A stretch of DNA of 64,000 nucleotides. It comes from Streptomyces venezuelae (lineage in GTDB: Bacteria; Actinomycetota; Actinomycetes; Streptomycetales; Streptomycetaceae). Both the position numbers and the translations under genes were made by a program. The stretch covers positions 124,001 to 188,000 of the forward strand of contig NZ_CP029191.1 in assembly GCF_008642335.1 (NCBI RefSeq), read 5' to 3'. The notes under the pieces were generated by a model. It saw only the letters and a program-made list of their open reading frames with translations, did no database searches and was not told the origin of the DNA. Shown piece by piece: positions 7,181 through 38,067 of the stretch; within the stretch, counting starts at the first letter, position 1, and each line of letters begins with the position of its first letter.

Positions 7181-8621
<1,441 letters not shown>

Positions 8622-8644
<23 letters not shown>

Positions 8645-12500: not shown

Positions 12501-13051
12501 TTGGTCTGCAGCAGGTCCTGGGTGGTCTCCACGATGAGCAGGTCGGCGCCGCCGGCGATGAGGCCTTCGGCGTTGGCCTGGAAGCCGTCGCGCAGGGTGG
12601 TGAAGTCGGTGTGGCCCAGGGTGGGGAGTTTGGTGCCGGGGCCCATCGAGCCGAGCACGAAGCGCTGGCGGCCGTCGCCGGCGTCGCATTCGTCGGCGAC
12701 CTGGCGGGCGATGTGGGCGCCGGCCCGGGAGAGTTCGAAGATGCGGTCGGCGATGTCGTACTCGTTCAGTGCGGCGTGGTTGGCGCCGAAGGTGTTGGTC
12801 TCCACGCAGTCCACGCCGGCCGCGAAGTAGGCCTGGTGCACCGAGCGCACGATGTCGGGGCGGGTGACGTTGAGGATCTCGTTGCAGCCCTCGAGCTGTT
12901 GGAAGTCGCCCAGGGTGGGGTCCTGGGCCTGGAGCATGGTGCCCATCGCGCCGTCGGCGACCACCACGCGGGTGGCGAGGGCCTCGCGGAGGGCGGCGGC
13001 GCGGGCGCGCGGCGTGCGGCCGGGCGTGCTGGGTGTGCTGGGTGTGCTCAT
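9524..13051 (-). CDS. metH: Cobalamin-dependent methionine synthase
   Basis: Transfers the methyl of methyl-THF to homocysteine through cobalamin. The 1175 residues hold all four modules: homocysteine domain with zinc ligands in [10 protein letters not shown] and [13 protein letters not shown]; pterin domain beginning around [20 protein letters not shown]12 cap and B12 domain with the cobalt-ligand motif [15 protein letters not shown]; and a C-terminal AdoMet reactivation domain with VVHGYFRC and [13 protein letters not shown] 13051 overlaps the adenosine kinase stop as ATGA and its own stop overlaps metF in the same way. No B12 riboswitch was recognised inside the operon. Confidence 0.97.
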
Positions 13052-14031
13052 GCGGTCCCCTCGAGCCGCGCCTCCAGGGCGCGGGCGGCGCCGGCTCCGT
13101 AGGTCTGGTCGATGCGGGCGCTCAGGTCGGCGGGGATGAGTTTGTACTCCTGGGTGCCGACCGATTCCAGGACGGTGGTGGCCAGGGCGCAGCCGAGCTG
13201 GGCGGCGCGTTCGTGGGGCAGTTCCCAGGCGGTGCCGGCCAGGAATCCGGCGCGGAAGGCGTCGCCGGCGCCGGTGGGGTCGGCGATCTTGTCGGTGGGG
13301 ACGGCGGGCACGGGCAGCCGGGGGCAGCCGGCGCGGGCCAGGGAGACGCCGCCGGCGCCCAGGGTGGTGATCCAGGTGCCGACGCGGTCCAGGAGCTGCT
13401 GTTCGCTCCAGCCGGTGCGCTCCAGCAGCAGGGCGGCCTCGTATTCGTTGGTGAACAGCCAGCGGGCGCCGTCCACCAGGCGGCGGGCCTGCTCGCCGTC
13501 CAGGCGGGCCAGTTGCTGGGAGGGGTCGGCGGCCACCGGGATGTTCAGGCGGTGGGCGGCGGCGGTGTGGCGCAGCATGGCCTGGGGGTCGTCGGCGCCG
13601 ATCAGGACGAGGCCGGGCGGGCCGGTGCGGGCGGTGACCTCGGCCAGGTCGATGTGGGAGGCCTCGGCCATGGCGCCGGCGTAGAAGGTGGCGATCTGGT
13701 TCTGGTCCTGGTCGGTGGTGCACACGAAGCGGGCGGTGTGCAGGGTGTCGCTGACCTGGACGGCGCCGGTGTCCACGCCGTGGTCGCGCAGCCAGTGGCC
13801 GTAGTCGGTGAAGTCCAGGCCGGCGGCGCCGATCAGGATCGGGTCCAGGCCGAGCAGGCCCAGGCCGAAGGCGATGTTGGCGCCGACGCCGCCGCGGCGC
13901 ACCTCCAGGCGGTCGGCGAGGAAGGACAAGGAGACCCGCTCCAGCTGTTCTTTGAGCAGCTGTTCGGCGAAGCGTCCGGGAAAGACCATCAGGTGGTCGG
14001 TGGCGATCGATCCGGTCACGGCGATACGCAC
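13048..14031 (-). CDS. PfkB-family adenosine kinase
   Basis: Phosphorylates adenosine released by AhcY to AMP, pulling the SAM cycle forward. The 327-residue protein has the PfkB signatures: RGGVGANIAFGLGLLGLDP near residue 45 and the ATP/anion-hole motif DPTGAGDAFRAGFLAG with its catalytic Asp near the C-terminus. GTG 14031 has AAGGAG nine bases upstream. Its stop overlaps the metH start. The family also covers ribokinases and fructokinases; adenosine is inferred from the metK/metH/ahcY company and from similarity to actinobacterial adenosine kinases. Confidence 0.88.
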   Translation of the reverse strand: MRIAVTGSIATDHLMVFPGRFAEQLLKEQLERVSLSFLADRLEVRRGGVGANIAFGLGLLGLDPILIGAAGLDFTDYGHWLRDHGVDTGAVQVSDTLHTARFVCTTDQDQNQIATFYAGAMAEASHIDLAEVTARTGPPGLVLIGADDPQAMLRHTAAAHRLNIPVAADPSQQLARLDGEQARRLVDGARWLFTNEYEAALLLERTGWSEQQLLDRVGTWITTLGAGGVSLARAGCPRLPVPAVPTDKIADPTGAGDAFRAGFLAGTAWELPHERAAQLGCALATTVLESVGTQEYKLIPADLSARIDQTYGAGAARALEARLEGTA

Positions 14032-14247: not shown

Positions 14248-15462
<1,215 letters not shown>

Positions 15463-15982: not shown

Positions 15983-17572
15983 TCAGGCGGGGTCGGGCAG
16001 GTGGTGGCGGAGCTGCTGGGTCAGGGCGATGCGCTGGACCTTGAGGGTGGCGGTGCGCGGCAGGTCGGCCTGCGGGAGCTGGACGGGGTCGGCGAGCTGG
16101 GGGAAGTCGGTGACCGCGGCGCGCCAGCGGGCGCGGTCCAGGGGGGCGTCGTCGGTGGTGCAGACGACGGGGACGGGCCGGTCGTCGGGGCCGGTGACCA
16201 CGACCAGTTCGCTCAGTTCCGCCAGCCGTCCCAGGACGACGTCCTCGATCTCGAGGGAGCTGCGCACGCCGTCGATCATGTCGACTTCGCGGTCGAGCAT
16301 GTGCAGGCAGCCCAGTTTGGTGCGGTAGCCGACGTCGCCGGTGCGCCACCAGGCGCCGTTGCGGTTGGTGTCGTAGCGGTCCTGTTCGGCGTGGTAGGTC
16401 TTGGCCAGGCCGGGCCAGGCGACCTCGATGAAGCCGGGGTTGGTGGGCGAGGGGGTCTTGCCGTTGCGGCTGACGACGCGGACCCTGGCGGCGCCGGCGG
16501 GCATGGCCCAGCCCACGCAGCGGCCGTTGGCCTTGTGGGCGGAGTTGCGGAAGTAGGCGCGGCCGACGGCGGGGCCGACCTCGCTCTGTCCGTAGATCTG
16601 GAAGAACAGGGCGCCGGGGCGGTCGGAGGCGTTGAGCAGCCGGCCCATGGTGCGCGGGTGGATGGCGTCGAAGGTGCTGCTGAAGACCTTCACCGAGGCG
16701 AAGGGGCGGCGCGGGTCGCCGGCCAGGTCTTCCCAGTCCATCAGGGAGTTGGGCAGGGCCTCGACGAAGCCGGGGCGGTGGGCCAGGAACTGCTCGGCGA
16801 CGCTGTCGGGGTCGGATTCGTTCATGAGGAGGATCGGGAGCTGTTTGAGCAGGGCCAGGGACATCGCCGCGACCATCCGGGAGTGCACGAAGGGGATGTG
16901 GATGGCGACGGTGTCCTTGCGGCGCAGCAGGGTGAGCAGGCGCCACTGCGGGACCAGGCGGATGCCCTGGGTGCGGGGGGTGTGCACGACGAGTTTGGGC
17001 AGGCCGGTGGTGCCGGAGGTGTGGGTGATGACGGCGGCCTCGTCGATGGGGCGCACGACCGGGGCGACGCGGGGGGCGTGGGCGAGGCGGGCCAGGGACT
17101 GGGTGCCCTCGCGTTCACCGGCGGTGATCAGGACGTGCCGGGTGAGGTCGGCCAGGGCTTCCTTGGCCAGGCCCGCGTCGAGTTTGGGCAGGTCGGTCAG
17201 GAGGCTGGGGCGTTCCAGGCGCTGCATGAGGGCGGCGACGGTGGGGGCGTCCAGGGCGGGCGAGAGCATCACCGGGACGGCGCCGATGCGGGAGGCGGCG
17301 GCGCCCAGCATCCAGATGTCGGCGTTGGCGCTCTTGTGGATGACCAGGTGTTCGTCGGGGCGGATGCCGGCCGCCCACAGGCGGGCGGCCAGGTCGTCGA
17401 TGGCCTCGGCGAACTCGGCCAGGGTCAGGCGCCGGCCGGCCTGGGGCAGGACGTGCAGGTCGTGGTCGAGGGTGATGGGGATGGAGCCGTTGACGGCGGC
17501 GGCCATCTCCGGCAGGAGACCGAGGTGCAGACCGCGCTTTTGGATCGATGCGTAGACCGTGGAGCCCTTCAT
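15983..17572 (-). CDS. ANL-superfamily AMP-forming ligase, possible diazotase
   Basis: A 529-residue adenylating enzyme. Core motifs are complete: THTSGTTGLPKLVVHT (A3), FFQIYGQSEVGPAVG (A5), WWRTGDVGYRTKLGCLHMLD (A7), REVDMIDGVRSSLEIEDVV (A8) and the A10 lysine in ATLKVQRIAL. ATG 17572 has AAGGAGACAGCCCCG upstream. There is no carrier domain and none in the window, so it acts on a free substrate. The family makes acyl-CoAs or acyl-adenylates, but close members in cremeomycin and avenalumic acid pathways diazotise aromatic amines with nitrite. With an aminotransferase alongside, removal of the amino group is an attractive inference. No CreD/CreE-type nitrite genes are visible. Confidence 0.8.
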   Translation of the reverse strand: MKGSTVYASIQKRGLHLGLLPEMAAAVNGSIPITLDHDLHVLPQAGRRLTLAEFAEAIDDLAARLWAAGIRPDEHLVIHKSANADIWMLGAAASRIGAVPVMLSPALDAPTVAALMQRLERPSLLTDLPKLDAGLAKEALADLTRHVLITAGEREGTQSLARLAHAPRVAPVVRPIDEAAVITHTSGTTGLPKLVVHTPRTQGIRLVPQWRLLTLLRRKDTVAIHIPFVHSRMVAAMSLALLKQLPILLMNESDPDSVAEQFLAHRPGFVEALPNSLMDWEDLAGDPRRPFASVKVFSSTFDAIHPRTMGRLLNASDRPGALFFQIYGQSEVGPAVGRAYFRNSAHKANGRCVGWAMPAGAARVRVVSRNGKTPSPTNPGFIEVAWPGLAKTYHAEQDRYDTNRNGAWWRTGDVGYRTKLGCLHMLDREVDMIDGVRSSLEIEDVVLGRLAELSELVVVTGPDDRPVPVVCTTDDAPLDRARWRAAVTDFPQLADPVQLPQADLPRTATLKVQRIALTQQLRHHLPDPA

Positions 17573-18000
17573 CGGGGCTGTCTCCTTAGGTGAGGTGGCC
17601 GGACGGCGACGGGATGGGGGCCCCGGGGCGGGGCCGGGCCTTATCGGGCGGGGTGGGGCGGGTCGGGGCGGTGAGGGGGGCGGGCCCGGTGGTGGGCCGG
17701 GGTGCTGCGGCCGGGATGCTGCGGGGTGGGCCGGCCGCGGCGGAGCGGGCCCGGCCGCCCCCCGGGGGAGGGGAGGCCGGGCCTGCTCCGGCGGCGCGAC
17801 CGAGGGCGTGGCTGGTGCGACCGAGGGCTCCCGGCGGTGCGGCGGACCGGCCCCAGTGGCAAGGCCGACGCGCCCCGGCGGCGCAGCGGGCCCGCAGCAA
17901 CGACTCCGGCGCCCTGGCCCGTTGGACGCCCGGTCGAGCGGTGAGGCAGGCCGGCCGCAACGGTCAGGCGGGCAGGCCCGGCGGTGGGCCGCGCCGGCCA
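17573..18000. other. GC-rich gap upstream of the ANL gene
   Basis: About 430 bp with no supported gene. It probably includes the promoter of the ANL gene. The sequence grades into the 88-bp repeat array to its right. Confidence 0.5.
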
Positions 18001-18600
18001 CGGCGATGTGGGCGGCGGCCACCGCGACAGTGCAGCGGGGCCACCACGGCGGTGCGACCGCCCCCAACGGCGGGGCAGCCCCCACGGCGCGGCCGACAGC
18101 CACCACGACAGCGCAGCAGGGCCGCCACGAACAGCGCGACCGACACACCCCAACAGCGGGGCAGCCCGGCCCCACCGCGCGGCCGACGGCCACTGCGACG
18201 GCGCAGCGGAGCCGCCACGGCGATGCGACCGCCCCCCAACGGCGGGGCAACCCGCCCCCACGGCGCGGCCGACAGCCACCGCGACAGTGCAGCGGAGCCG
18301 CCACGGCGATGCGACCGCCCCCCAACAGCGGAGCAGCCCACCCCCACGGCGGTGTGGCCGACGGCCACCACGACAGTGCAGCGGGGCCGCCACGATGGCG
18401 CGACCGCCCCCAACGGCGGGGCAGCCCACCCCCACGGCGGCGCGGCCGACGGCCACCACGACAGTGCAACGGGGCCGCCACGGCGATGCGACCGACACAC
18501 CCCAACAGCAGGGCAGCCCGCCACGGCGGCGCGGCCGACACCCACCGCGACAGTGCAGCGGCCGCCACGGCGGTGCGACCGACACTCCCCCCAGCACGCG
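18001..18600. repeat. Seven-copy minisatellite with a unit of about 88 bp
   Basis: The marker GGCCGACRGCCACCRCGACA recurs at 18091, 18181, 18267, 18356, 18444 and 18533, with one more diverged copy before 18091. Spacings are 90, 86, 89, 88 and 89 bp. Each copy also contains GCAGCGGRGCCGCCACGGCG and CCCCAACGGCGGGGCAGCCC. There are no unique spacers, so it is not a CRISPR. Indels between copies break any common frame, so it is not a repeat protein. Confidence 0.9.
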
Positions 18601-18958
18601 GTGGCGCGGGCCCGCCGCAACCGCGAAGTTGCTGCCCCCCGCCGTGCAGCGGGCCGGGCCGGATGTTGGGCCCCCCGGGGTGCGCCGCCGGTGTGGTCGG
18701 CCGAGGTGTGGAGCGGGCCGGGGTGCCGGGTCCCTGGGCCGGACGGGCTGGGTGGCGGGGAGGAAAATTTTTGGGGGGCGGGCTCACATTGTGCGGGGCT
18801 GTGTCGTCGGAGGGGTGAGGCGGACGAGGCGGACGCCGCCGGGCCGTATCGCGGGCCCGGGGGTCGCTGCCCCGGACCGCACCGGGGCGCCGGGGGCGCC
18901 CCCTCGGGCCGGGTCTGCCGACCGGCCGCGCCCCCGGCTCCGCCCACCGGCCACCGGC

Positions 18959-18996
18959 CGGGCCCGCACGGTTCTGACCGAAGCCGCGCGGGCCCG
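18959..18996 (-). terminator. Hairpin downstream of the quinone reductase
   Basis: CGGGCCCGCACGGTTC pairs with GAAGCCGCGCGGGCCCG, with one bulge and one mismatch, around a five-base loop. It follows the stronger hairpin at 19006-19040, so the transcript may end at either. Confidence 0.5.
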
Positions 18997-19005
18997 GCCG
19001 GGTTC

Positions 19006-19040
19006 ACCCACCCCCGCCCCCGGGCGGGGCGGGGGCGGGT
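19006..19040 (-). terminator. 15-bp hairpin abutting the quinone reductase stop
   Basis: ACCCACCCCCGCCCC and GGGGCGGGGGCGGGT pair with one mismatch around CGGGC. The stem touches the stop codon at 19040-19042. It is likely the end of the 23760-19040 polyketide unit. Confidence 0.65.
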
Positions 19041-19651
19041 CAGGCGGCGGCGCGGCCGGCCTTGAGCGCGGCGGTGGTGTCCACCACGCGGCGGGCCTGG
19101 TGGCGGGCGGCCTGCAGCGCGACCTCGCCGGGCGCGCCCTCGCCGGCGACGTGCGAGGTGCCGTACGGGTTGCCGGACTGGAACTGGATGGGGTCGGTGT
19201 AGCCGGGCGGCACGATGATGCCGCCCCAGTGGTAGAAGGTGTTCGACAGCGCCAGGATCGTCGACTCCTGCCCGCCGTGCGCGGTGTTGCTCGCGGTGAA
19301 CGCGGAGAACACCTTGCCCGCGATCTTGCCCGCGAACCACAGCGGGCCGGTGGTGTCGATGAACGCGCGCAGCTGGCTGGCCGGGTTGCCGAACCGGCTG
19401 GGGGTGCCGAACAGGACCGCATCCGCCCAGGCGAGGTCGTCGTGGGTGGCCTCGGCGATGTCGGTGGTGGCCGCCCGGTGCTCCACCCAGGCGGGGTTGG
19501 CGTTGACGGCGGCCTCGGGGGCGGTCTCGGCGACCTTGCGCAGCCGCACGGTGGCGCCGGCTTTCTCCGCGCCTTCGGCCACGGCCTGGGCCAGGGCGTG
19601 CACGGTGCCGGTCGCGCTGTAGTAGATGACGGACACGTTCACAGGGTCCAC
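19040..19651 (-). CDS. wrbA: WrbA-type NAD(P)H:quinone oxidoreductase
   Basis: A 203-residue flavodoxin-like FMN enzyme that reduces quinones to hydroquinones by two electrons. It has the phosphate-binding loop YYSATGTVHALAQAVAEGAE at the N-terminus, GTPSRFGNPASQLRAFIDTT in the middle and TASNTAHGGQESTILALSNT, all WrbA signatures. GTG 19651 follows GAGGAAACAGCT. It is the last gene of the type III PKS unit. A naphthohydroquinone would be the nucleophile needed for methylation or prenylation, so flaviolin-type quinone reduction is a reasonable inferred role. The gap before it holds a 14-bp repeat. Confidence 0.88.
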   Translation of the reverse strand: MDPVNVSVIYYSATGTVHALAQAVAEGAEKAGATVRLRKVAETAPEAAVNANPAWVEHRAATTDIAEATHDDLAWADAVLFGTPSRFGNPASQLRAFIDTTGPLWFAGKIAGKVFSAFTASNTAHGGQESTILALSNTFYHWGGIIVPPGYTDPIQFQSGNPYGTSHVAGEGAPGEVALQAARHQARRVVDTTAALKAGRAAA

Positions 19652-19670
19652 AGCTGTTTCCTCGTGTTCT

Positions 19671-19725
19671 GGGTGCTGAGTACTGGGTGCTGAGTACTGG
19701 GTGCTGAGTGCTCGGTGCCGGGTGC
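19671..19725. repeat. 14-bp tandem repeat GGGTGCTGAGTACT
   Basis: Units begin at 19671, 19685 and 19699, followed by a decayed copy. It lies between the methyltransferase stop and the quinone reductase start within what is probably one transcript. Confidence 0.85.
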
Positions 19726-19750
19726 CGGGTGGGCGTCGTACGCGGCGCGG

Positions 19751-20818
19751 CTAGCGGGCGATGACCAGCGTGGCGGGCGGGGCGGAGTGGAAGGTGATGT
19801 CGCTGAAGCCGGCCTTGGTGAGCCAGGCGTGGTAGTCGGCGCGCCGCCAGGTGCCGCCCTGCTGGGACTTCAGGAGCATCTCGGAGGCGAACAGCAGCGG
19901 GAAGGCGGGTCCGGTGCGGTCGTCGTCGACGACGTAGTCGCACACCACCAGGGCGCCGCCGGGCTTGAGGGCGTCCTTGAGGCGGGTGAAGACCTCGATG
20001 TTGTCCTCGGGGCCTTCCTGGTGGGCGATGTGCGAGTACAGCGCCACGTCGTAGGCGCCGGTGCCGAAGTCGGTGGTGTGGAAGTCGCCGTCGATGCAGG
20101 TGAAGCGGTCGGCGACGCCGCGTTCGGCGAGCAGCTCGCGGGCGATGGCGTTGATGGGTTCCCAGTCCAGCTGGGTGGCGCGGGCGGCGGGGTTGGCCTC
20201 GAGCCAGGTGGCGGAGTAGATGCCCGAGCCGCCGCCGACGTCCAGGATGGACAGCGGGCCGGCCTCGGACAGGCGCAGCACGTCGGCGGCGACGGCGGCG
20301 GCGGGCACCGACTGGGCGGCGATGGCCGGCACGACCTGGCCCCAGTGGGGGTTGTCGGCGACTTCGGTGGTGGGGTCGCTGACCGGGCCGCCGGCGCGTA
20401 CCACCTCGGGCAGGGCGGCCAGTTTGCCCATGTGGGTGAGCTTGAGGCGGGCCATCGCGGACAGGTCGGCGGGCCGGCCGGCGACCAGGTAGGCGGAGGC
20501 GGCCGGGGTGTTGCGGTAGCGGCCCCGCTCGAGGGTGACCAGGCCGATGCTGACCAGGCCGTCCAGCAAAGTCTGGGCGCCGCGTTCGGAGATCTGGGCG
20601 CGGGCGGCCAGCTGGGCGGCGTCGTGGGCGCCGTCCTCGAGGTGGGTGAACAGGCGGTGTTCGGCGGCGGCGCCCAGGATGCCGGTGGACCAGTAGCCGT
20701 TGATGAGCCGCAGGATGGTGTCCGGCCCCCAGTCCGGAGCGGAATCCGGCCCGGCATGCCCCGCGGTGTCCGGCCCGGTGTGGGGCGTGGTGGTCGTGGT
20801 GGGCTGGTGCTCGCTCAT
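19751..20818 (-). CDS. SAM-dependent methyltransferase, candidate flaviolin-type methyltransferase
   Basis: A 355-residue class I methyltransferase of the plant-O-methyltransferase-like dimeric type: an N-terminal winged-helix dimerisation region (LFTHLEDGAHDAAQLAARA...TLLDGLVSIGLV), SAM motif I in SILDVGGGSGIYSATW, then CIDGDFHTTDFGTGAYDVAL and CDYVVDDDRTGPAFPLL. ATG 20818 overlaps the aminotransferase stop as ATGA and has GGGGAGGAACCGC before it. In naphterpin- and furaquinocin-type pathways a comparable enzyme methylates a carbon of the aminated flaviolin ring. That role is inferred here; O-methylation cannot be excluded. Confidence 0.85.
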   Translation of the reverse strand: MSEHQPTTTTTPHTGPDTAGHAGPDSAPDWGPDTILRLINGYWSTGILGAAAEHRLFTHLEDGAHDAAQLAARAQISERGAQTLLDGLVSIGLVTLERGRYRNTPAASAYLVAGRPADLSAMARLKLTHMGKLAALPEVVRAGGPVSDPTTEVADNPHWGQVVPAIAAQSVPAAAVAADVLRLSEAGPLSILDVGGGSGIYSATWLEANPAARATQLDWEPINAIARELLAERGVADRFTCIDGDFHTTDFGTGAYDVALYSHIAHQEGPEDNIEVFTRLKDALKPGGALVVCDYVVDDDRTGPAFPLLFASEMLLKSQQGGTWRRADYHAWLTKAGFSDITFHSAPPATLVIAR

Positions 20819-22023
20819 GCGGTTCCTCCCCGGCCCGCGGGGGCCGCGTGGGTGCGAAGGGCGGTGCGCAGCACCGTCACGACGCGTTCGATCTGGTCGG
20901 CGGTGAGTTCGGCGTGCATGGGGATGGCCAGGTGGCGGGCGAACAGGTCGGCCGAGACGGGGCAGGCCTGCCGGGCGGCGAAGACGGGCTGCAGGTGGCT
21001 GGCCCAGGTGCCGTGGCCGCAGCCGATGCCCTGGCCGCGCAGGTCGGCGGCGAGGGCGGCCCGGTCCACCCGCGCGTCCAGCGCGATGAGGTAGGACTGC
21101 CAGGCGTGCGTGCGGTCGGCGGGCACCTGGGGCAGCGTCACCAGTTCCTCGTCGGCCAGGAGTTCGCCGTAGGCGGCGGCGACCTGGGTGCGGCGGGCCA
21201 GGAGTTCGTCGATCCGGCCGAGCTGGACCTGCAGGATGGCGGCGGCGATGTCGGAGAGCTTGAAGTTGTAGCCGATCTCGGTGAACTCCGGGATGGGCAG
21301 GCCGACGATCTTCGACTGGTCGAAGATGCTGCCGATGCCGAAGGAGGAGCGCAGCCGGGCGTCGGCGGCGATGGCCGGGTCGGCGGCCAGCAGGGCGCCG
21401 CCCTCGCCGCTGGTGGCGCCCTTGCGGCCGTGGAAGGACAGGCAGGAGACGGGGGCCAGGGCGCCGGCCTGGCGGCCCTGGTAGGTGGCGCCGACCGCGC
21501 AGGCGGCGTCCTCGATGAGGAACAGGCCGTGCCGGTCGGCCAGGGCCTGCAGTTCGCGGTAGTCGGCGGGCAGGCCGACGGTGTCCACCGCGATGATGCC
21601 GGTGGTGCGCTCGGTGATCAGGTCGGCGACGGCCTGGACGTCCACGGTGTGGGTGTCGGGGCGTACGTCGGCGAAGACGGGCACCGCGTCCAGGTAGCGC
21701 ACCGCGTGGGCGGGGGCGGGGAAGGTGTAGTCGGCGACGATGACTTCGTCGCCGCGCTGCACGCCCAGCGCCAGCAGCGCCACGTGCAGGGCGGCGCCGC
21801 AGTTGCTCAGGGCGACCGCGTCCATGGCGTAGCGCTGGGCGAGCTGGGCCTCCAGGGCCTTGCCGCGCGGGCCCTGGCCGGCCGGCCAGCCGGAGGCGAA
21901 CACCTCGGCGACGGCGGCCAGTTCCTGCTCGCCCAGGCTGGCGTGCACCAGCGGAACGGCGGCACCGGACCCGGCGGCGGGGGCGGACGTGGCGGCGGAG
22001 GCGGCGGGTGTGGTGGTGGTCAT
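20815..22023 (-). CDS. DegT/DnrJ/EryC1-type PLP aminotransferase, Fur3-like by context
   Basis: A 402-residue fold-type I aminotransferase. The PLP lysine is Lys201 in SFHGRKGATSGEGGA, and DYTFPAPAHAVRYLDAVPVF and EDAACAVGATYQGR are typical of the family. Family members usually aminate keto-sugars, but there are no sugar genes here. It sits five bases after the cupin and overlaps the methyltransferase by ATGA. In furaquinocin biosynthesis an aminotransferase of this family converts flaviolin (or its precursor) to 8-amino-flaviolin, and the same reaction is inferred. The N-terminal 20 residues are a low-complexity Thr/Ala tail. Confidence 0.87.
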   Translation of the reverse strand: MTTTTPAASAATSAPAAGSGAAVPLVHASLGEQELAAVAEVFASGWPAGQGPRGKALEAQLAQRYAMDAVALSNCGAALHVALLALGVQRGDEVIVADYTFPAPAHAVRYLDAVPVFADVRPDTHTVDVQAVADLITERTTGIIAVDTVGLPADYRELQALADRHGLFLIEDAACAVGATYQGRQAGALAPVSCLSFHGRKGATSGEGGALLAADPAIAADARLRSSFGIGSIFDQSKIVGLPIPEFTEIGYNFKLSDIAAAILQVQLGRIDELLARRTQVAAAYGELLADEELVTLPQVPADRTHAWQSYLIALDARVDRAALAADLRGQGIGCGHGTWASHLQPVFAARQACPVSADLFARHLAIPMHAELTADQIERVVTVLRTALRTHAAPAGRGGTA

Positions 22024-22028
22024 GGCGG

Positions 22029-22598
22029 TCACGTCCCCTGCGGCTTGGGCGACTGCTGCGGCTGCGGCTGCGGTGTGGTGGGCGGCTGGTAGCGCAAGGG
22101 GGTGAGTTCCTCGACGTCGTAGCGCTTGCGCATCTCCTCCACGGCCGCCGGGTCGACGGTGGTGCCGCGCGCCCAGATCTCCGCGATCTCCTCGAAGTAC
22201 TGCTCGTGGTCGGGCGAGGGGAAGCTCTGGAAGAGCATCTTGACCGGCTTGTCGGTGGCGTTGCGGAAGGCGTGCGGGGTGCCGGTCGGCACGAACATGC
22301 AGCCGCCCTCGGCGGCGCGGATGACGCGCTCGCCGCTGGCGGAGCGCCAGTGGTGCCAGGTGTCGCGGGTGCGTTCGGTGGGCTCGAAGCACATCAGGTC
22401 CAGCTCGCCCTCGAGGACGTAGAAGAACTCCTGGGACTCGTGGTGGACGTGGGCGCCGACGTCGAAGCCGGGCGGCACGATCACCTCGAAGATGGAGACG
22501 GCGGAGCCCTGCGCCTGGGTGGCCTTGAAGGTCACCTCCTGCGCCGGGGTCTTCAGCGTGCGTCCCCCACCGGGCGGGACGATCAGGCTGGAAGTCAT
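22029..22598 (-). CDS. Cupin protein, candidate MomA-type flaviolin-forming monooxygenase
   Basis: A 189-residue single-domain cupin with metal-site motif 1 in DVGAHVHHESQEFFYVLEGEL and motif 2 in GCMFVPTGTPHAFRNAT, followed by a helical extension and a Pro/Gln-rich tail. A small cupin called MomA next to rppA in Streptomyces antibioticus oxidises tetrahydroxynaphthalene to flaviolin (known for that family). The position directly after a type III PKS supports the same activity here. ATG 22598 has AAGGAAAACC upstream and lies 94 bp after the PKS stop. Confidence 0.82.
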   Translation of the reverse strand: MTSSLIVPPGGGRTLKTPAQEVTFKATQAQGSAVSIFEVIVPPGFDVGAHVHHESQEFFYVLEGELDLMCFEPTERTRDTWHHWRSASGERVIRAAEGGCMFVPTGTPHAFRNATDKPVKMLFQSFPSPDHEQYFEEIAEIWARGTTVDPAAVEEMRKRYDVEELTPLRYQPPTTPQPQPQQSPKPQGT

Positions 22599-22692
22599 GT
22601 GATGGTTTTCCTTCGGTTGTCGCGGACATCTCGCACGGCGCGCGGCCCGCACCTGCCCCTGTATGGGGGGGGCGGGCGGCCGGGGCGGCGGG

Positions 22693-23760
22693 TCAGCCGG
22701 CGGCGGGCGGGGTGTCGCTGTTCCAGCGGCCCAGGGCCATCTCGGCGGTGATGCCGGGGCCGAATCCGGCGATCAGCCCGGTGGCGTCGGGCATCGGGGT
22801 GTCCTCTTCGAACAGGCGCAGGGCGGCGTCCAGGACGACCGCGCTGGCGATGTTGCCGTACTCGGTCAGCGTGGACCAGCTGTGGCGGAACACCTTGCGG
22901 TCCACGTCCAGGAACTTGGCCAGGTCGTTGAGGATCCGCGGGCCGCCGGCGTGCACGATGTAGAAGTCGAGGTTGGAGGCGTCCCACTGGTGGCCGGCGG
23001 CGAAGTCGCGCAGCACCGGGGCGAGGGGTTCCATCGTGCCGGGCACCCGGCGGTCCAGCTGGAAGTGGAAGCCGGTGTCGCGCACCGAGTAGGAGATCCA
23101 GTCCTCGGTGTCGGGGATGAGGTAGGAGGAGTTGCGCTCCAGCTCGATGCCGGTGCCGCCGGTGCCGCGCACCACGGCGGCGGCGACCGCGTCGCCGAAC
23201 AGGCCGTCGGAGAGCAGGGAGCCGATGTCGTCCATGTCGGGCTGGTAGCACAGCGAGCACAGCTCGCAGGAGACGATCAGGACGTTGCTGCCGGGGTGGG
23301 CCACGCAGAAGTCGTGGGCCCGGTTGATGGCGGCGCCGCCGGCCGCGCAGCCCAGCTGGGCGATGGGGATCTGGCGGGTGTCGGAGCGAAAGCCCATCTT
23401 GTTGATGAGCCAGGCGGTCAGCGAGGGCATGAGGAAGCCGGTGCACGACACGTAGATGATGGCGTCGATGTCGCGGGCGTTGACCTCGGCGTTGGCCAGG
23501 GCCTCCTCGACGACCTCGGGGGTGCGTTTTTTGGACTCCGCCTCGTAGATGCGGTTGCGCTCGGTCAGGCCGGGGTGGGCCAGGGTCTGCTCGATGGGCT
23601 GCACGATATGCCGCTTCAGCACCCCCGTGTTGCGGATCAGCCGCAGCGCCAGGGGCAGTTGCGGCTTTCCGGCGTGGACGCTCTCGGCGAATTGAAGCGT
23701 CTCTTCCGCTGTGATGACGTATTCCGGCACACGCACTGACGGCTTGCATAGCCTAGGCAT
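22693..23760 (-). CDS. rppA: Type III polyketide synthase, 1,3,6,8-tetrahydroxynaphthalene synthase
   Basis: Condenses five malonyl-CoA to 1,3,6,8-tetrahydroxynaphthalene without an ACP. The 355-residue protein has the catalytic triad at the positions known for RppA: Cys138 in AQLGCAAGGAAI, His270 in FYIVHAGGPRI and Asn303 in YGNIASAV. The C-terminal GFGPGITAEMALGRW is the family signature. It heads the unit PKS - cupin - aminotransferase - methyltransferase - quinone reductase. The ATG at 23760 lacks a strong RBS. A different starter or chain length cannot be excluded, but the gene company argues for tetrahydroxynaphthalene. Confidence 0.93.
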   Translation of the reverse strand: MPRLCKPSVRVPEYVITAEETLQFAESVHAGKPQLPLALRLIRNTGVLKRHIVQPIEQTLAHPGLTERNRIYEAESKKRTPEVVEEALANAEVNARDIDAIIYVSCTGFLMPSLTAWLINKMGFRSDTRQIPIAQLGCAAGGAAINRAHDFCVAHPGSNVLIVSCELCSLCYQPDMDDIGSLLSDGLFGDAVAAAVVRGTGGTGIELERNSSYLIPDTEDWISYSVRDTGFHFQLDRRVPGTMEPLAPVLRDFAAGHQWDASNLDFYIVHAGGPRILNDLAKFLDVDRKVFRHSWSTLTEYGNIASAVVLDAALRLFEEDTPMPDATGLIAGFGPGITAEMALGRWNSDTPPAAG

Positions 23761-23802
23761 ATCGGGAATCCACTTTCTCTAGAGTCTGCCTTCTGCACGT
23801 GA

Positions 23803-23816
23803 GGAAGCTGCTTAGC
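23803..23816. promoter_or_regulatory. Inverted repeat AAGCT-N4-AGCTT upstream of the PKS
   Basis: Short palindrome about 45 bp upstream of the PKS start, in an AT-richer patch (23760-23825) expected to hold the promoter. It is a weak candidate operator. Confidence 0.3.
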
Positions 23817-24224
23817 TTTCGCGCACTCCCGGTGCCGCCCGGCGGGCGGCGGCGAGGGCAGCTGCTGTGACGGCGTCTGCCGCGCCGCCTTCGCCGGCCC
23901 CGGACCAGCACCACATCCCGCGCCCTCTTCTGCGCGGGCCCTGTCGAACCTGCACGGCCCGGTGGAGCCCTGGGGGCGGGGCCCGTGGGGGCAAAGCCCC
24001 GGGGTAGCTCCCCGGGGCAGGTCCCCGGGGCAGGTCCCCGGGGGTGCCGGGGGCCCGTGGGGCGGGCCCGCTGGGCAGGGCCCGTGGGGGCGGGGCCTGC
24101 CCGTGGGGGCGGGCCGGCCCGTTGGGGCGGGGCCCGTTGGGGGCAGGGGTGGTGGTCCGGGCGCCGGGGAAGGCGGCGCGGATGATGCATCGGGTGGGGC
24201 AGGCCGGCTCGAGGGCCGGGTGAG

Positions 24225-24299
24225 GCGGAGTGCGGTGGGGCGGAGTGCGGTGGAGCGGAGTGCGGTGGGGCGGAGTGCGGTGGGGCGGAGTGCGGGGCC
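24225..24299. repeat. 15-bp tandem repeat GCGGAGTGCGGTGGG, five copies
   Basis: Copies start at 24225, 24240, 24255, 24270 and 24285 and are nearly identical (GGGG or GGAG junctions). Confidence 0.9.
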
Positions 24300-25101
24300 G
24301 GGGTTCCCGGGAGGGTGTGGCCGAGGCCGGAGGCCCTGGCGGGGAGGTGCGCGGGCGCGGTGCCGCGGGAGGGTGTGGCCGGGGGGCGGGGTGGTGCGGG
24401 TGCGCGGTGCCGCGGTCTTGCCCTGGCGGGCGGGGTACGGGCGCGGGTCCGGGGCGGTGGGGCGTGCCGTGGGGTGCGGGCCGGGGGGTGGCGCCGGGCG
24501 GGCGTTGCGGGGCCCGTGGGGGTACGGGGGCGCCCCGGCGGTACGGGAGAGGCGCCCTCGCCCTGGGCCCGGGGGGGGGCGGCTCGTCGTCCGCCGTTCA
24601 CCGCCGGCTGCTGGCTGTCGGCTGCTGGCCTCTCGCGGTGCTGGCGCGTTGTCGAAGGGCGGTCGCGTACCGGGCCGGGCGCGGCGGGGCATGGCGGGGC
24701 AGGGGCAGCGGGCAGGGGCAGCGGTCCGGTGCGCGCCGGCTGTTCTCCTGCCGGTGCGCCCTTTCTGGGTCCGCCGCCGACCGGCCCCCGCAGGGGGGTT
24801 GACCGGGCCGGGCCGGATCGGGCGGGGCCGCGGCACGGCTGCGCCCACGCGGGATGGGCTCACTGCCGGTGTCTGCCGGTGCGGGTGCTGGCGCGGCTTT
24901 TTCCGGTACGGATTTCGTCACGGCCGAGGAGCCGAAATCAAGGAGGGAAAATCCCTGCCGGGCCCGCGTGCGTCGACGCCGGGCGTCAGGGCGTACGGGC
25001 AAATAAATGCGGTGGGGGGAAGCGATGCCGCCGGGTCGTGAACTCGGCAGGGCCGTTAGGGGCGGCGGTTACGACGCTCAACCCACCGCCTCAGAACCGG
25101 C

Positions 25102-25136
25102 TTTGGGCAGGGAAGTCGTGCGGAAATAGTGACACG
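25102..25136. promoter_or_regulatory. 35-bp motif shared with 4300-4334
   Basis: TTTGGGCAGGG then GGAAATAGTGACACG, matching the copy upstream of the mevalonate kinase with the same 18-bp distance between TTGGGC and TAGTGA. It lies in the only AT-richer part of this gap, about 1.34 kb upstream of the PKS start. Confidence 0.45.
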
Positions 25137-25166
25137 GATGCCGTCCCGGCACCAAGGGACTCCGAA

Positions 25167-25182
25167 AGTGACGTAGGTCACT
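25167..25182. promoter_or_regulatory. Palindrome AGTGAC-GTAG-GTCACT
   Basis: Perfect six-base arms around GTAG, 30 bp to the right of the shared 35-bp motif, which itself ends in AGTGAC. Three AGTGAC half-sites in about 55 bp suggest an operator. Confidence 0.4.
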
Positions 25183-25789
25183 GCGCCGGGGTGTTGTGCG
25201 CTCCGTATCTCCGGACGGCTGTCCGCCTTCGCGCGGAGTGAGGGCGTCCGCATCTCCCGCTGGACGGGGGCGAGTTGGCTGCCGCGGTGCCGGGGCGGGG
25301 ACGGGAGCGTGCGGAGGGCGCCCGCCGCGCTCCGGCGGGTCGGGCCCGGCACTCCCCCACCACCGCGGCCGCGGTGCACGGCCGCCCCGCCTGCGCCCCG
25401 GGGCGGCGCCCCTACCTCCCTCCCCGTAACGGATGCCATCTCAACGACCGTGCCAGGGCACCCGGTTGGGCCCGGGTTGCGGCAGGACCGGACAGGCCTG
25501 GGGCTGCGGCAGGCCCGGTTGGGCCTGGGGTTGCGGCAGGCCCGGTCGGGTCGGATGCCGCGGGGGCGGGCGTCCGGGGCGGCCGGACGGCGCACGCCCG
25601 GGGGGGGCCGGGCCGGGCACAACGCCTTGGGGGGGCGTATGCAGCGGTGCGTGCCGCCCCTCCCCCGCCGGCCGGCCGGGCGGGCGGGCGGCCAGGCGGG
25701 CGGGTGGGGTGCGGGTCCGGGGGACGCTCCGGGCTCCGGCCGTCCCGGGGGGGGCGCCGCGTGTGGAGGCGGCGCCACCGCGTGCGGGG

Positions 25790-25865
25790 GCGGCGTCCGT
25801 GTGCGGGGGCGGCGTCCGTGTGCGGGGGCGGCGTCCGTGTGCGGGGGCGGCGTCCGTGTGCGGGC
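25790..25865. repeat. 19-bp tandem repeat GGCGTCCGTGTGCGGGGGC, four copies
   Basis: Copies start at 25792, 25811, 25830 and 25849, ending just before the aromatase stop. Confidence 0.9.
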
Positions 25866-25896
25866 CGGGGCGGGGGCGGTGTTGGCCGGGGCGGGG

Positions 25897-26856
25897 TCAG
25901 AGGACGCGGATGGCGGATTCGGCGTGGTGGCGGGCCAGTTGCAGGGTCTGGCGGCTGTCGCGGGCGAGGTCGGCGCGGATGCGGCGGCGGGCCTCGGCCA
26001 GGGTGGTGCCGGCGCCCAGGACCTGTTCGATGTGGTCCTCGCGCAGCAGGGCGTGGTGCTGGGCGACGACGGTGACGCCGCGTTCGTCGGGCAGGACGGA
26101 CCATTCGCCGCAGTGCGCGGCCAGCAGCGGGCGGGGCACGGTGGCCTTGTGCACGATGCGGCCGGCGTGCGGGAAGCAGATGCGGATGCCGGCCACGTTG
26201 CGGGCGGGTCCGCCGTCGTCGGCGGCAAGTTCCAGGGCGACTTTCTGGATGCCCAGGTGGGGTTCTTCCAGGGCGGCGCGGCGCACGTGCGGGAGCTGGC
26301 CGGGCCAGTCGGCGACGTCGTAGAGGAAGCCGTAGACCAGTTCGGCGGGCCCGTGGACGCGGATCGACTCGGCGAAGGAGAGGGCCAGCTGGTCCAGGCG
26401 GGTCCAGCGTTCGGCCAGGAACTGCAGGCTGCGCAGGGTGGAGCGGGTGTTGTCGGTGGTGACCTGGGCGAGCCAGATGGCGTCCTGGGGCCGGTCGGGG
26501 GCGGCGGTGAACTCGTGTTCCAGGGTCACCCGGCAGCGGCCGGGATCCAGCGGCTGCACGCTCCAGCGGCCGGCCATGGAGGTGGCGGGTTCCATGAGCA
26601 GGTCCTGGCGGAAGGCGATCTGGCGGCGTACGGGGTCCTGGGTGCGGTGGGCGGTCCAGGAGACGATCTGGCCCTCGGCCAGGGCCCAGACCCGCACGCG
26701 TTCGTGGACGCCGTCGAAGTCCAGGCGCTGGGCGTAGATGTTGCGCGGCAGGTAGAGCGGCCAGCGCTCGGGGTCTGCGATCAGCGCGTAGAGGGTGGCG
26801 GCGGGTGCGGCCACCTCCCGCGTGTGCGACAGCCGGTGGATGCGCTCGCCGGGCAC
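25897..26856 (-). CDS. Didomain aromatase/cyclase (SRPBCC fold)
   Basis: A 319-residue protein made of two START/Bet v1-like domains, about residues 5-150 (REVAAPAATLYALIADPERWP...) and 155-300 (ESIRVHGPAELVYGFLYDVA...). This layout is typical of didomain aromatase/cyclases that fold reduced poly-beta-keto chains on type II PKS carrier proteins. GTG 26856 follows AAAGGGGGGCCCG. No ketosynthase, chain-length factor or ACP is in the window, so its substrate here is unclear. It could act with enzymes beyond the left edge, steer a spontaneous aldol step of the naphthalene pathway, or be a leftover. Confidence 0.88.
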   Translation of the reverse strand: MPGERIHRLSHTREVAAPAATLYALIADPERWPLYLPRNIYAQRLDFDGVHERVRVWALAEGQIVSWTAHRTQDPVRRQIAFRQDLLMEPATSMAGRWSVQPLDPGRCRVTLEHEFTAAPDRPQDAIWLAQVTTDNTRSTLRSLQFLAERWTRLDQLALSFAESIRVHGPAELVYGFLYDVADWPGQLPHVRRAALEEPHLGIQKVALELAADDGGPARNVAGIRICFPHAGRIVHKATVPRPLLAAHCGEWSVLPDERGVTVVAQHHALLREDHIEQVLGAGTTLAEARRRIRADLARDSRQTLQLARHHAESAIRVL

Positions 26857-28978
26857 CGGGCCCCCCTTTCTGTTGTGTTGTGCGCGCGTTGGTCGGGGCA
26901 GGTCGGACCGGGCCGGGCCGGGTGGTGCAACGCGGTGGGGCGGGGCGGGTGCCCGGTGGCGGGCGGGCGGGTCCGGGGTGGAGCGCGTCCGGAGTGGGGC
27001 CGGTGGTCTGTGCAGTGTGCCCCATCCGGCTCGACGCGCACCCGGAGACGGCTCGAGTCCGCCTCGTCCCGTGCCGGGTGTGCGATGGGAGGGGGCGGGA
27101 GGGGGGTGGGGGTTGCTGCCCGGCTCTCGGCCGCCTGAGGCTGCGGCCTGGCTGCGGCCTGGTGTCCCGCCTGGCCTGCGGCCCGGACTCCCGGCCTGGT
27201 GCGCTGCCTGGCCTGCGGCCCGGACTCCCGGCCTGGTGCGCTGCCTGGCGTGCGGCCTGGTGTCCAGCCCGGTCTCCGCGTCCGGTCCGGTCTACGGTCC
27301 GCCGTCCGGTCCGGTCTTCGGCTCGGCGTCCGGGCCGGCGTCCGGCCGCTCGGCCGGGGCGCCGCGCGCGGGGAGCGGGTGCGGCGCGGGCAGCCCGGGT
27401 GGTCCACGGGGGCTGGGCGACCGGGTGGTTGCAGGGGGCTGGGCGACCGGGTGGTTGCAGGGGGCTGGGCGACCGGGGGCTGGGCCGCCGGAGCCCGGAG
27501 GCGGGGGCCAGATGGCGGGAGGGGGCTGGGGGCGCGGTGGCCGCACCGCCGGGCGGCTGGTAACCGGGCGGTCGGTGACCAGGTCGTCCGACCGCCGGGT
27601 GGCTGAGGCCCGGACCGCCGGTGAGCAGGTGTCCCGGCCGCCGGTGAGCAGGTGTCCCGGCCGTCGGAAGGCTGGCGCCGGACCGCCGGTGGCCAAGTGG
27701 CCTGCCATCGGAAGGCCAGGACCGGACGGCCGGTGAGCAGGTGGCCCGGCCTATCGGAAGGCCGACGCCCGGACCGCCGATGGCCAAGTGACCCTAGCCT
27801 GGCCGTCTTGCCAGTGATCAGGCGCCATGGGCCCGGCGGCGGCAGCCAGTGGCGGACGGCCGGTGATTGGGCAGCCATGGCGCCACGACCGGTAGCCCAA
27901 CGGCCAGTGGCCGCAGGGCCGGTGGCCGGGCAGCCATGGGACCGACGGCGGAAGCCCAACAGCCAGCGGGCCAAGGGCCGGTCGCCGGACAGCCATGACC
28001 GACGGCGGAAGCCCAACAGCCAGCGAGCCAAGGGCCGGTCGCCGGACAGCCATGACCGACGGCGGAAGCCCAACAGCCAGCGGGCCAAGGGCCGGTCGCC
28101 GGACAGCCATGACCGACGGCTGGCCGCCGACGGCTGGCCGCTGACGGTCAGTGGCCGAAAGGCCGGTGACCAAGCGGCCCCGCCCGAGGACCGGCAGCCG
28201 GACGATCCGGCTGCCGGATGTCCACGGCCGGACACCCGGTAGCCGACAGCCGGCGGCTGTGGCCCGGGGGGACACCGAGCGGCCGTGGCCGGGCGACCGG
28301 CGTCCGGCGTCCGGACGGCCAGTCCCCAAGGGGCAGCCGGCCAAGCGGCCGGGAGCCAGGCATCCGGCGTCCGGACGGCCACCGACCGCACGGCCGGGCC
28401 CCAAACGCCCCTGGCCGTACGGCCGATACGGGAACGGCCGGGGCCGGACGGCCGAACACCTGCTGGCCCTGGCCCACCGTCCGGAAGTCGGTCATCCGGC
28501 GAACCGGAAGCCGGACAGCCGGACAGCCGGAGCCGAACGATCGCCTCCCGGACAGCCAGAAGCCAACGGCCGGAAAGCCAGGCAGCCGGACCACTGGAGC
28601 CGAACGGTCGGACGCCAACGTGCCCCGGCCAAACGGCCGTCAGCCGGATATCCGACGACCAGGCAGCCCGGCCCGAAGGGCCCGTCAGGACCTGGCCCTG
28701 GCCAACCGGCCGGTAACCGCACGATCAACGACCGGTCAGCCACCGACCGCACGGCCGGCGGCCGGGCAGCCGGCGAGCGGAAAGCCGTGCCGGGCGGCCG
28801 GGCGCCGGCTGGCCCGGCGAGCGGGACCGGCGGCCGCACGGGCCGGGGCCCACAGGCCGGCTGTCGGCGGGCCGGTGGCCGGGTATGCGGGCCGTCGGCC
28901 GGCCAGAGCCAGGTGTTGCGGGCCGTCGGCCGGCCGGGGCCAGGTGTTGCGGGCACCGGCCGGCCGGTGCCGGGTGGT
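26857..28978. repeat. 2.1-kb repeat-filled gap between the aromatase and the first SARP
   Basis: No supported gene in 2.1 kb. It consists of successive families: GGCCTGCGGCCCGGACTCCC-like units near 27170-27260; GGTTGCAGGGGGCTGGGCGA copies near 27420-27480; GTGAGCAGGTGTCCCGGCCG pairs near 27620-27660; a 57-bp array at 27944-28120; and CCGGCAGCCGGAC-type motifs to 28970. Long frames exist on both strands but are Arg/Pro/Ser-rich and lack RBSs. Confidence 0.75.
27944..28120. repeat. 57-bp tandem repeat, about three copies
   Basis: GACGGCGGAAGCCCAACAGC recurs at 27944, 28001 and 28058, with a partial copy at 28115. The copies differ by only one or two bases, so the expansion looks recent. Confidence 0.92.
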
Positions 28979-29800: not shown

Positions 29801-29929
29801 GGGTGTTCTCCGTACTTCGTCGAGTGTGTGTCTTGACTGCATTCCGTCGCCGCGGGCGCTCTTGGGTCGGGTGCGGGGCGTCCTCCTTTCGCCGTACGGG
29901 CCACGGGGCCCCGGTCGTGGAACAGGAAC

Positions 29930-29957
29930 AGGAACAGGAACAGGTGCCGGAAGGGGA
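29930..29957. repeat. Six-base repeat (GGAACA)n
   Basis: Four to five GGAACA copies in the leader or promoter region of the first SARP gene. Confidence 0.8.
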
Positions 29958-30038
29958 ACCGGGACGGGGACGGGAAGGGGCAGGGGTGAGGCGGCGTCAG
30001 GCGCCGTACACGCCTTGCGGGTTGCACGCTAGGCGGCG

Positions 30039-30060
30039 CGGGCCAGGTGCGCCTGGCCCG
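30039..30060 (-). terminator. 9-bp perfect hairpin downstream of the second SARP
   Basis: CGGGCCAGG-TGCG-CCTGGCCCG, 360 bp past the second SARP stop and 240 bp before the first SARP start. It may end the upstream transcript, or it may belong to the first SARP's leader. Confidence 0.45.
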
Positions 30061-31413: not shown

Positions 31414-31520
31414 AGCGTCCCCCTGAAGGTGGTTGTTGCCGCTCGCGCCGTAGCCGCTCGCGGAGCCGATCCCCTTACCGCACCCAGATTCAAATAGATT
31501 CGGGGACCGCTGTCAATACA

Positions 31521-38028: not shown

Positions 38029-38067
38029 TATACGCGGTCTGGACACGATTCGTGACGGGAGTCACCA

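What the first reader, a model, noticed from the sequence alone, without database searches (positions are those of the whole stretch)
15983..23760. A flaviolin-type meroterpenoid gene set: RppA-like PKS, cupin, aminotransferase, methyltransferase, quinone reductase and an ANL enzyme
The PKS has C138, H270 and N303 exactly as in RppA, and the following genes match steps known from naphterpin/furaquinocin-type pathways: cupin oxidation to flaviolin, transamination, C-methylation and quinone reduction. Together with the mevalonate kinase and SAM-cycle genes this points to a prenylated naphthoquinone. The extra aromatase, SARP pair and receptor trio are not standard for those pathways, so the product may be new.
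Basis: partly seen in the sequence, partly recalled or inferred. Interest (0 to 1): 0.7.

Follow-up and report, generated by a model that had tools for sequence, protein, structure and literature searches.

The report
Prenylated naphthoquinone cluster with diazotase
This is the core of a Streptomyces gene cluster for furaquinocin-type prenylated naphthoquinones, much like clusters already published; it also carries genes that look set to put nitrogen on the molecule and turn it into a short-lived diazo group.

Summary
In detail: six minus-strand genes at window 23760-15983 encode a tetrahydroxynaphthalene (THN) synthase, cupin, DegT aminotransferase, SAM methyltransferase, WrbA-type quinone reductase and ANL enzyme. 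They are one half of a larger cluster. The other half lies left of the window in the same genome: two ABBA prenyltransferases, a polyprenyl synthase, a Fur6 orthologue (C-methyltransferase) and phenazine genes. At the window's left edge sits a CreE/CreD-type nitrous-acid pair. Of 27 genes tabulated for the published furaquinocin K/L cluster of Streptomyces sp. Je 1-369, 21 have a counterpart of the same kind in the same order; that cluster lies in the chromosome's terminal inverted repeat, and so does at least part of this one. Changes: the window methyltransferase is Fur4/MfqH-like (probably O-methylation) and the ANL enzyme is most likely the 8-aminoflaviolin diazotase. The Je 1-369 paper reports no N-N bond genes in its cluster; the genes at the same places here match exactly such enzymes, which offers an explanation for the acetylhydrazone of furaquinocin L. 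New member of a known kind; low to moderate interest.

The parts
22693..23760 (-). RppA/THN-type III polyketide synthase (start 23730 or 23760)
   Evidence: 1u0m, 2.1e-160; C106, C138, H270, N303
22029..22598 (-). Cupin (Fur2/NapB2-like), proposed THN oxidation to mompain
   Evidence: PF07883; next to AT in relatives
20815..22032 (-). DegT aminotransferase (Fur3/NapB3-like), proposed to make 8-aminoflaviolin
   Evidence: PF01041, 8.5e-94; 24 of 29 relatives at 73-81% identity
19751..20818 (-). SAM methyltransferase, Fur4/MfqH-like by inference; probable O-methyltransferase
   Evidence: 22.6% to the Fur6 orthologue; distribution
19040..19651 (-). WrbA-type NAD(P)H:quinone oxidoreductase; 95% identical second copy at G000:C1:102157-102759
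   Evidence: (NF002999 174.4 bits over cut-off 141; TIGR01755)
15983..17572 (-). ANL enzyme (Fur5/NapB4-like), proposed ATP-dependent 8-aminoflaviolin diazotase
   Evidence: PF00501; AvaA6 diazotase model second best, far under cut-off; P-loop, A5 Glu331, A10 Lys511 in 120 of the 120 listed relatives
1..1701 (-). CreE-type L-aspartate N-hydroxylase (nitrosuccinate synthase); runs off the window (G000:C1:123761-125701)
   Evidence: 8cp2, 1.1e-192; on 8CP2
3034..4044 (-). Mevalonate kinase
   Evidence: TIGR00549 232.4 bits, cut-off 163
4513..6039 (-). MFS transporter
6231..6692 (-). TetR_C_16 regulator-like protein
7181..8644 (-). Adenosylhomocysteinase (SAM recycling)
8622..9527 (-). Methylenetetrahydrofolate reductase (SAM recycling)
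9524..13051 (-). B12-dependent methionine synthase (SAM recycling)
13048..14031 (-). PfkB kinase, probable adenosine kinase (SAM recycling)
   Evidence: PF00294; the substrate is inferred from context
14248..15462 (-). S-adenosylmethionine synthetase
17998..18581 (.). Tandem repeat (86/177-bp units) in the gene-free gap between ANL and quinone reductase
25897..26856 (-). Two-domain polyketide cyclase/aromatase-like protein; role unknown
   Evidence: matches in L027 and G243 only, of 31 relative stretches
28979..29683 (-). SARP regulator
   Evidence: PF03704
30421..31413 (-). SARP regulator
20435..42199 (.). Part of the left terminal inverted repeat that is also assembled at the right chromosome end; inner boundary at 42199

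Best explanation
The six genes are the core of a furaquinocin/furanonaphthoquinone-type meroterpenoid cluster that runs from about G000:C1:102 kb to 148 kb, probably all inside the terminal inverted repeat. Proposed route: the type III PKS makes THN; the cupin oxidises it to mompain; the aminotransferase gives 8-aminoflaviolin; the CreE/CreD pair makes nitrous acid from aspartate; the ANL enzyme, using ATP, turns the amine into a diazo group; the diazo group is replaced by hydrogen to give 1,2,4,5,7-pentahydroxynaphthalene; the Fur6 orthologue adds the C-methyl, the window methyltransferase an O-methyl, and one ABBA prenyltransferase a prenyl chain from the polyprenyl synthase. SAM-cycle genes supply methyl groups. 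Shown here: gene identities, order, neighbours, conserved catalytic residues. Inferred from published work on fur/nap/mfq: the order of chemical steps, the diazotase role, and which methyltransferase acts where. Not resolved: which enzyme, if any, removes N2, and the exact final product.
For: THN synthase residues and 1u0m match. Fur6 orthologue. Two PF11468 prenyltransferases and a polyprenyl synthase. CreD-type lyase: 5xny 2.5e-146 and the nitrosuccinate lyase model at 641.4 bits, just under its cut-off of 650. CreE-type hydroxylase: 8cp2 1.1e-192, a solved aspartate N-hydroxylase. ANL motifs invariant in the 120 relatives listed of 1507. The Fur3-type AT (73% or more) is in 24 of the 29 relatives that rank highest for ANL and in 0 of 20 genomes without an ANL match (best there 40%). 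In 12 of those 24 a CreE homologue lies within 25 kb of the AT on the same contig, within 150 bases in five; CreD sits next to CreE in 13 of 13 fetched relative stretches that hold CreE. Genome-wide, CreE at 50% identity or more: 21 of 24 against 9 of 20 (Fisher p = 0.0037). Gene order agrees with Je 1-369 Table 3 for 21 of 27 rows. HMG-CoA reductase exists elsewhere in the genome.
Against: In 12 of the 24 relatives with the AT no CreE lies within 25 kb, and three (G050, G156, G271) have none at 50% identity; G050 is only 82% complete. CreE is also common in control genomes (9 of 20), so presence alone is weak. The Fisher test ignores relatedness. Five of the 29 relatives (G023, G219, G257, G259, G289) have an ANL match of 57-63% but no such AT, so ANL enzymes of this group also serve other pathways. 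The ANL protein scores 96.9 bits on the AvaA6 diazotase model, far under its cut-off of 975; no CreM sequence was compared. The 120 relatives behind the motif count are all at least 74% identical, so invariance there is weak evidence, and the motifs fit any active ANL enzyme. The quinone reductase has no fur counterpart in the Je 1-369 table. The key paper on reductive deamination in furaquinocin (Noguchi 2025) is not held.
Confidence: 0.85

Rival explanations
1. The ANL enzyme is an acyl-CoA or acyl-AMP ligase that activates a carboxylic acid for a side branch, and the pathway runs through flaviolin without a diazo step.
For: Pfam and nearly all NCBIfam models shown are acyl-CoA ligases or other acid-activating enzymes; the Je 1-369 table calls its counterpart an acyl-CoA ligase; half of the relatives with the AT have no CreE within 25 kb.
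Against: The published scheme has no step that needs an activated acid; the AvaA6 diazotase model is the second-best NCBIfam match; CreE/CreD lie in the same cluster here; published work states that the diazo-forming enzyme's gene is conserved in furaquinocin, naphterpin, furanonaphthoquinone and napyradiomycin clusters.
Confidence: 0.07
2. The nitrogen is not cryptic: the cluster's true end product keeps an N-N bond, as in furaquinocin L (acetylhydrazone), and the nitrous-acid genes serve that product.
For: The Je 1-369 strain, whose cluster has the same gene order, makes furaquinocin L with an acetylhydrazone; this genome's left arm holds a second CreE/CreD pair at 14461-18455 beside a SARP gene and an O-methyltransferase.
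Against: The same core genes occur in G344, taken for the marfuraquinocin producer S. niveus; marfuraquinocin E has no nitrogen. No acetyltransferase or hydrazine-forming gene was identified, though none was searched for.
Confidence: 0.1
3. The cluster is a partly dead duplicate: the right-arm copy is truncated and frameshifted, so only one arm works.
For: The right copy stops inside the methyltransferase gene at the contig end and carries 12 single-base indels.
Against: The 12 differences are all single-base indels in runs of G or C (some only two long), with no substitution in 21.8 kb, and 8 of 12 lie in the last 2.3 kb of the contig: the pattern of assembly error at a collapsed repeat. The Je 1-369 paper places its cluster in 160,307-bp TIRs.
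Confidence: 0.07

Closest known systems
Furaquinocin K/L cluster of Streptomyces sp. Je 1-369 (PMC9686526; passages, with Table 3 rows)
   Same: 21 of 27 tabulated genes have a counterpart of the same kind in the same order here, including the SAM-cycle block, the mevalonate kinase, the cytochrome b gene and the prenyltransferase-methyltransferase end; reported as lying in the TIRs.
   Different: Orf6, 13, 17, 21 and 24 have no clear counterpart among my gene calls and Orf20 only a weak one. The table pairs Orf27 with fur21 (61%), while the gene at that place here is a Fur6 orthologue. Protein sequences of Je 1-369 were not compared. The paper reports no N-N genes in its cluster; here the equivalent genes match CreE/CreD and a diazotase-type ANL.
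Furanonaphthoquinone/endophenazine cluster (fnq) of S. cinnamonensis DSM 1042 (paper not read; known here through PMC9686526 and PMC12814520)
   Same: First known hybrid of meroterpenoid and phenaziterpene genes; the Je 1-369 paper says its SAM-recycling arrangement is identical in fnq.
mfq (marfuraquinocin) cluster of Streptomyces sp. S4.7 / S. niveus SCSIO 3406 (PMC12814520, part 1 of 7 and passages)
   Same: Type III PKS, cupin, AT, Fur4-type methyltransferase, quinone reductase, ANL, SARP and phenazine genes in one 40-kb stretch of G344, whose contig length equals that given for S. niveus.
   Different: No Fur6-type methyltransferase and no CreE/CreD match in that stretch at my thresholds; its CreE match lies 3.3 Mb away.
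Furaquinocin A cluster (fur) of Streptomyces sp. KO-3988 and napyradiomycin clusters (PMC12670698, parts 1-2 of 4 and passages)
   Same: THN synthase, cupin, AT, diazo-forming enzyme, C-methyltransferase; the Fur6 structure 8har is a close match.
   Different: Napyradiomycin routes include halogenation; no haloperoxidase appeared among the genes family-tested here. HMG-CoA reductase is not in the cluster here.

Membership tests
THN-derived meroterpenoid cluster (furaquinocin/furanonaphthoquinone type) | RppA-type THN synthase with Cys-His-Asn triad | tested here: met
THN-derived meroterpenoid cluster (furaquinocin/furanonaphthoquinone type) | Cupin and DegT aminotransferase next to the PKS | tested here: met
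THN-derived meroterpenoid cluster (furaquinocin/furanonaphthoquinone type) | ABBA aromatic prenyltransferase in the cluster | tested here: met
   two PF11468 proteins
THN-derived meroterpenoid cluster (furaquinocin/furanonaphthoquinone type) | Fur6-type C-methyltransferase | tested here: met
   8har, 642 bits over full length
THN-derived meroterpenoid cluster (furaquinocin/furanonaphthoquinone type) | Product is a prenylated naphthoquinone | not testable with these tools
   needs LC-MS
ATP-dependent arylamine diazotase (CreM/AvaA6/NapB4 type) | ANL fold with P-loop, A5 glutamate and A10 lysine | tested here: met
   motif names recalled; not specific to diazotases
ATP-dependent arylamine diazotase (CreM/AvaA6/NapB4 type) | Score over a curated diazotase model | tested here: not met
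   AvaA6 model 96.9 bits, cut-off 975; so it is not an AvaA6 equivalog. No model named for Fur5/NapB4/CreM was among the best 25 of 77 shown.
ATP-dependent arylamine diazotase (CreM/AvaA6/NapB4 type) | Diazotisation activity | not testable with these tools
   -
Aspartate-nitrosuccinate (ANS) pathway | CreE-type L-aspartate N-hydroxylase | tested here: met
   (8cp2, residues 1-630)
Aspartate-nitrosuccinate (ANS) pathway | CreD-type nitrosuccinate lyase | tested here: met
   (5xny); NF052556 at 641.4 bits, just under its cut-off of 650; SSAM loop present
Phenazine operon | phzA/B, C, D, E, G | tested here: met
   phzF was not among the genes family-tested and was not searched for

The most novel reading that the evidence does not exclude
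The cluster's diazo chemistry is not merely cryptic: with two CreE/CreD pairs in one chromosome arm, part of the 8-diazo intermediate is diverted to N-N-bonded naphthoquinones (furaquinocin L-like hydrazones), so one set of genes makes both nitrogen-free and N-N products depending on nitrous acid supply.
Probability: 0.12. Interest if true: 0.5.

Novelty: new member of a known kind. Interest (0 to 1): 0.22.

Why it matters
It settles an annotation that would otherwise read as an orphan PKS with a stray acyl-CoA ligase. It also points to a likely genetic source of the N-N bond in furaquinocin L: the paper on that compound found no N-N genes in its cluster, while the same-order genes here match a nitrous-acid pair and a diazotase-type enzyme. 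In the listings (2 papers; 25 of 301 shown) I saw no title or abstract start that makes this link; the papers listed were not all opened, and most subscription papers, including the key one, are not held.

Tried and rejected
Asking whether CreD co-occurs genome-wide failed twice on the machine; CreD was then looked for only in stretches fetched around the PKS, AT, ANL or CreE genes. Of the 24 relatives with the AT, G050 and G152 were not fetched; for G184 and G047 only a stretch around the AT was. NCBIfam gave no model for the aromatase-like gene or for the CreE-type protein. Considered and rejected: that the right-arm differences are real divergence (only indels); that the window methyltransferase is the Fur6-type C-methyltransferase. 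Considered and left open: whether the aromatase-like gene and the receptors mean a different product; they are rare or absent in the relative stretches.
Full report
WHAT IS THERE. The window is bases 124001-188000 of an 8,048,154-bp single-contig genome. On the minus strand between 23760 and 15983 lie six genes: a type III PKS, a cupin, a DegT aminotransferase, a SAM methyltransferase, a WrbA-type quinone reductase and an ANL enzyme (Pfam, NCBIfam). C106, C138, H270 and N303 of the PKS are in place, and 1u0m is its best solved relative, 2.1e-160. Beyond ANL follow MetK, a PfkB kinase, MetH, MetF, AhcY, a TetR_C_16 protein, an MFS transporter and mevalonate kinase. Between ANL and quinone reductase is a gene-free stretch with an 86/177-bp tandem repeat. 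Gene calls are from my own codon-usage script, not from an annotation.

THE REST OF THE CLUSTER IS LEFT OF THE WINDOW. Genes called in the left 124 kb include, going left: a CreE-type FAD enzyme that straddles the window edge (123761-125701; 8cp2, 1.1e-192; 8CP2 is an aspartate N-hydroxylase), a CreD-type lyase (121612-123156; 5xny, 2.5e-146; nitrosuccinate lyase model 641.4 bits against a cut-off of 650), a polyprenyl synthase, an FAD-binding protein, a cytochrome b, an ABBA prenyltransferase, a methyltransferase, a second ABBA prenyltransferase, and phzB, C, D, E, G, B. The methyltransferase between the prenyltransferases is the Fur6 orthologue (8har, 642 bits over the full length). HMG-CoA reductase lies at 6.73 Mb, so that step of the mevalonate pathway is encoded away from the cluster; the Je 1-369 paper reports five of six mevalonate genes outside its cluster.

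HOW IT MOST LIKELY WORKS. [quoted passage not shown] PMC12814520 (part 1 of 7 and passages) names 8-diazoflaviolin as an unstable intermediate, citing a recent study, and reports MfqH as needed for O-methylation and MfqW as the meroterpenoid prenyltransferase. The review PMC11705231 (passages) gives NapB4 as a CreM homologue at 43%. Our tests fit: the ANL protein keeps the P-loop, A5 glutamate (331) and A10 lysine (511) in the 120 listed of 1507 relatives, all at least 74% identical; the AvaA6 diazotase model is its second-best NCBIfam match, though far under the cut-off. Fur5 as the name of the fur counterpart comes from the Je 1-369 table. The enzyme that removes N2 is unknown here; in avenalumate and coumarate clusters it is AvaA7/CmaA7 with NADPH (passages of PMC10777205), and I did not search for a relative.

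CO-OCCURRENCE TEST. An ANL search of 392 genus members, this genome included, gave matches in 139 at E <= 1e-40. I then examined 50 genomes: this one, the 29 others that rank highest for ANL, and the first 20 listed without an ANL match. The Fur3-type aminotransferase occurs at 73-81% identity in 24 of the 29 and at no more than 40% in the 20 controls. The other five (G023, G219, G257, G259, G289) have ANL matches of 57-63% without it, so this ANL group is wider than THN clusters. Of the 24, 12 have a CreE homologue within 25 kb on the same contig, in five within 150 bases of the aminotransferase. At genome level 21 of 24 have CreE at 50% or more, against 9 of 20 controls (Fisher p = 0.0037, counts entered by hand, not corrected for relatedness). 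Against the reading: G050 (82% complete), G156 and G271 have none at that level, and in nine further genomes CreE is farther away or on another contig. In 13 of 13 fetched relative stretches with CreE, CreD lies next to it.

WHICH METHYLTRANSFERASE DOES WHAT. The window methyltransferase and the Fur6 orthologue are 22.6% identical over 243 aa. In the fetched stretches the former is missing and the latter present in G087, G068 and G141, and the reverse holds in G344. G344's contig has 7,990,492 bases, the length given for S. niveus SCSIO 3406, the marfuraquinocin producer (abstract); that they are the same is inferred from this. Marfuraquinocin E is C26H34O5 with a sesquiterpene on a methoxylated polyketide backbone, which leaves no carbon for a C-methyl (my arithmetic). 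So the window gene is most likely the O-methyltransferase.

COMPARISON WITH JE 1-369. PMC9686526 was seen as passages including Table 3. Of its 27 rows, 21 have a counterpart of the same kind in the same order here; Orf20 has a weak one (HTH_17, 24 bits against a cut-off of 27); Orf6, 13, 17, 21 and 24 have none that I could call. The table pairs Orf27 with fur21 at 61%, while our gene at that place is closest to Fur6; I cannot say which holds for Je 1-369. The paper reports TIRs of 160,307 bp that hold the cluster, and says that no genes similar to N-N bond genes were found in it. Its Orf7, Orf18 and Orf19 stand where our diazotase-type ANL, CreE and CreD stand. This is an inference from order and labels, not from its sequences. 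It would explain the acetylhydrazone of furaquinocin L.

CHROMOSOME END. Left 144435-166199 repeats in inverted orientation at the right contig end with 12 single-base indels and no substitution over 21.8 kb. The right contig end stops inside the repeat, so the repeat is probably about 166 kb long and the cluster is probably present twice. That is inferred. One relative, G068, also carries ANL, aminotransferase, cupin and CreE near both chromosome ends.

VERDICT. The cluster is a new member of a known kind, closely matching a published one in gene order.

Noticed in passing
G000:C1:14461-18455 (L009), left of the window: A second CreE/CreD-type pair (58.8% identical to the cluster's CreE; 61% to its CreD over 242 aa) beside an O-methyltransferase and a SARP gene 72% identical to the window SARP at 28979-29683; a separate nitrous-acid locus in the same chromosome arm.
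   Followed up: partly
window 19040-19651 and G000:C1:102157-102759: Two quinone reductase genes, 95% identical in protein, form a 660-bp inverted repeat (93.6%) about 40 kb apart, flanking the block from the phenazine genes to the ANL gene; recombination between them could invert that block.
   Followed up: partly
window 20435-42199 and right chromosome end: The assembled chromosome appears truncated at the right: the contig ends inside the terminal inverted repeat, with 12 single-base indels and no substitutions against the left arm.
   Followed up: yes
G000:C1:112408-114135 (L014): An extra cytochrome b gene in the cluster, matched also in stretches of G087, G068, G021, G267, G243 and G217's contig L029; it may be a resistant copy of the product's target, by analogy only.
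   Followed up: no
window 25897-26856; L027:1728-2678; G243 (L078): A two-domain aromatase-like gene upstream of the PKS has a match of 41-44% in two of 31 relative stretches, each near a THN synthase-like gene, although a type III PKS is not known to me to need a separate cyclase.
   Followed up: partly
L058, L059, L062: ANL relatives at 57-58% identity sit beside a PhzE-like gene in three genomes, hinting at use of this ANL group on phenazine-pathway or aminobenzoate substrates.
   Followed up: no
G000:C1:38-48 kb (L010-L011): Genes that look like a type II PKS cluster (two ketosynthase-like genes, acyl carrier, aromatase, several FAD hydroxylases) lie in the same left arm, judged from the starts of the called proteins only.
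   Followed up: no
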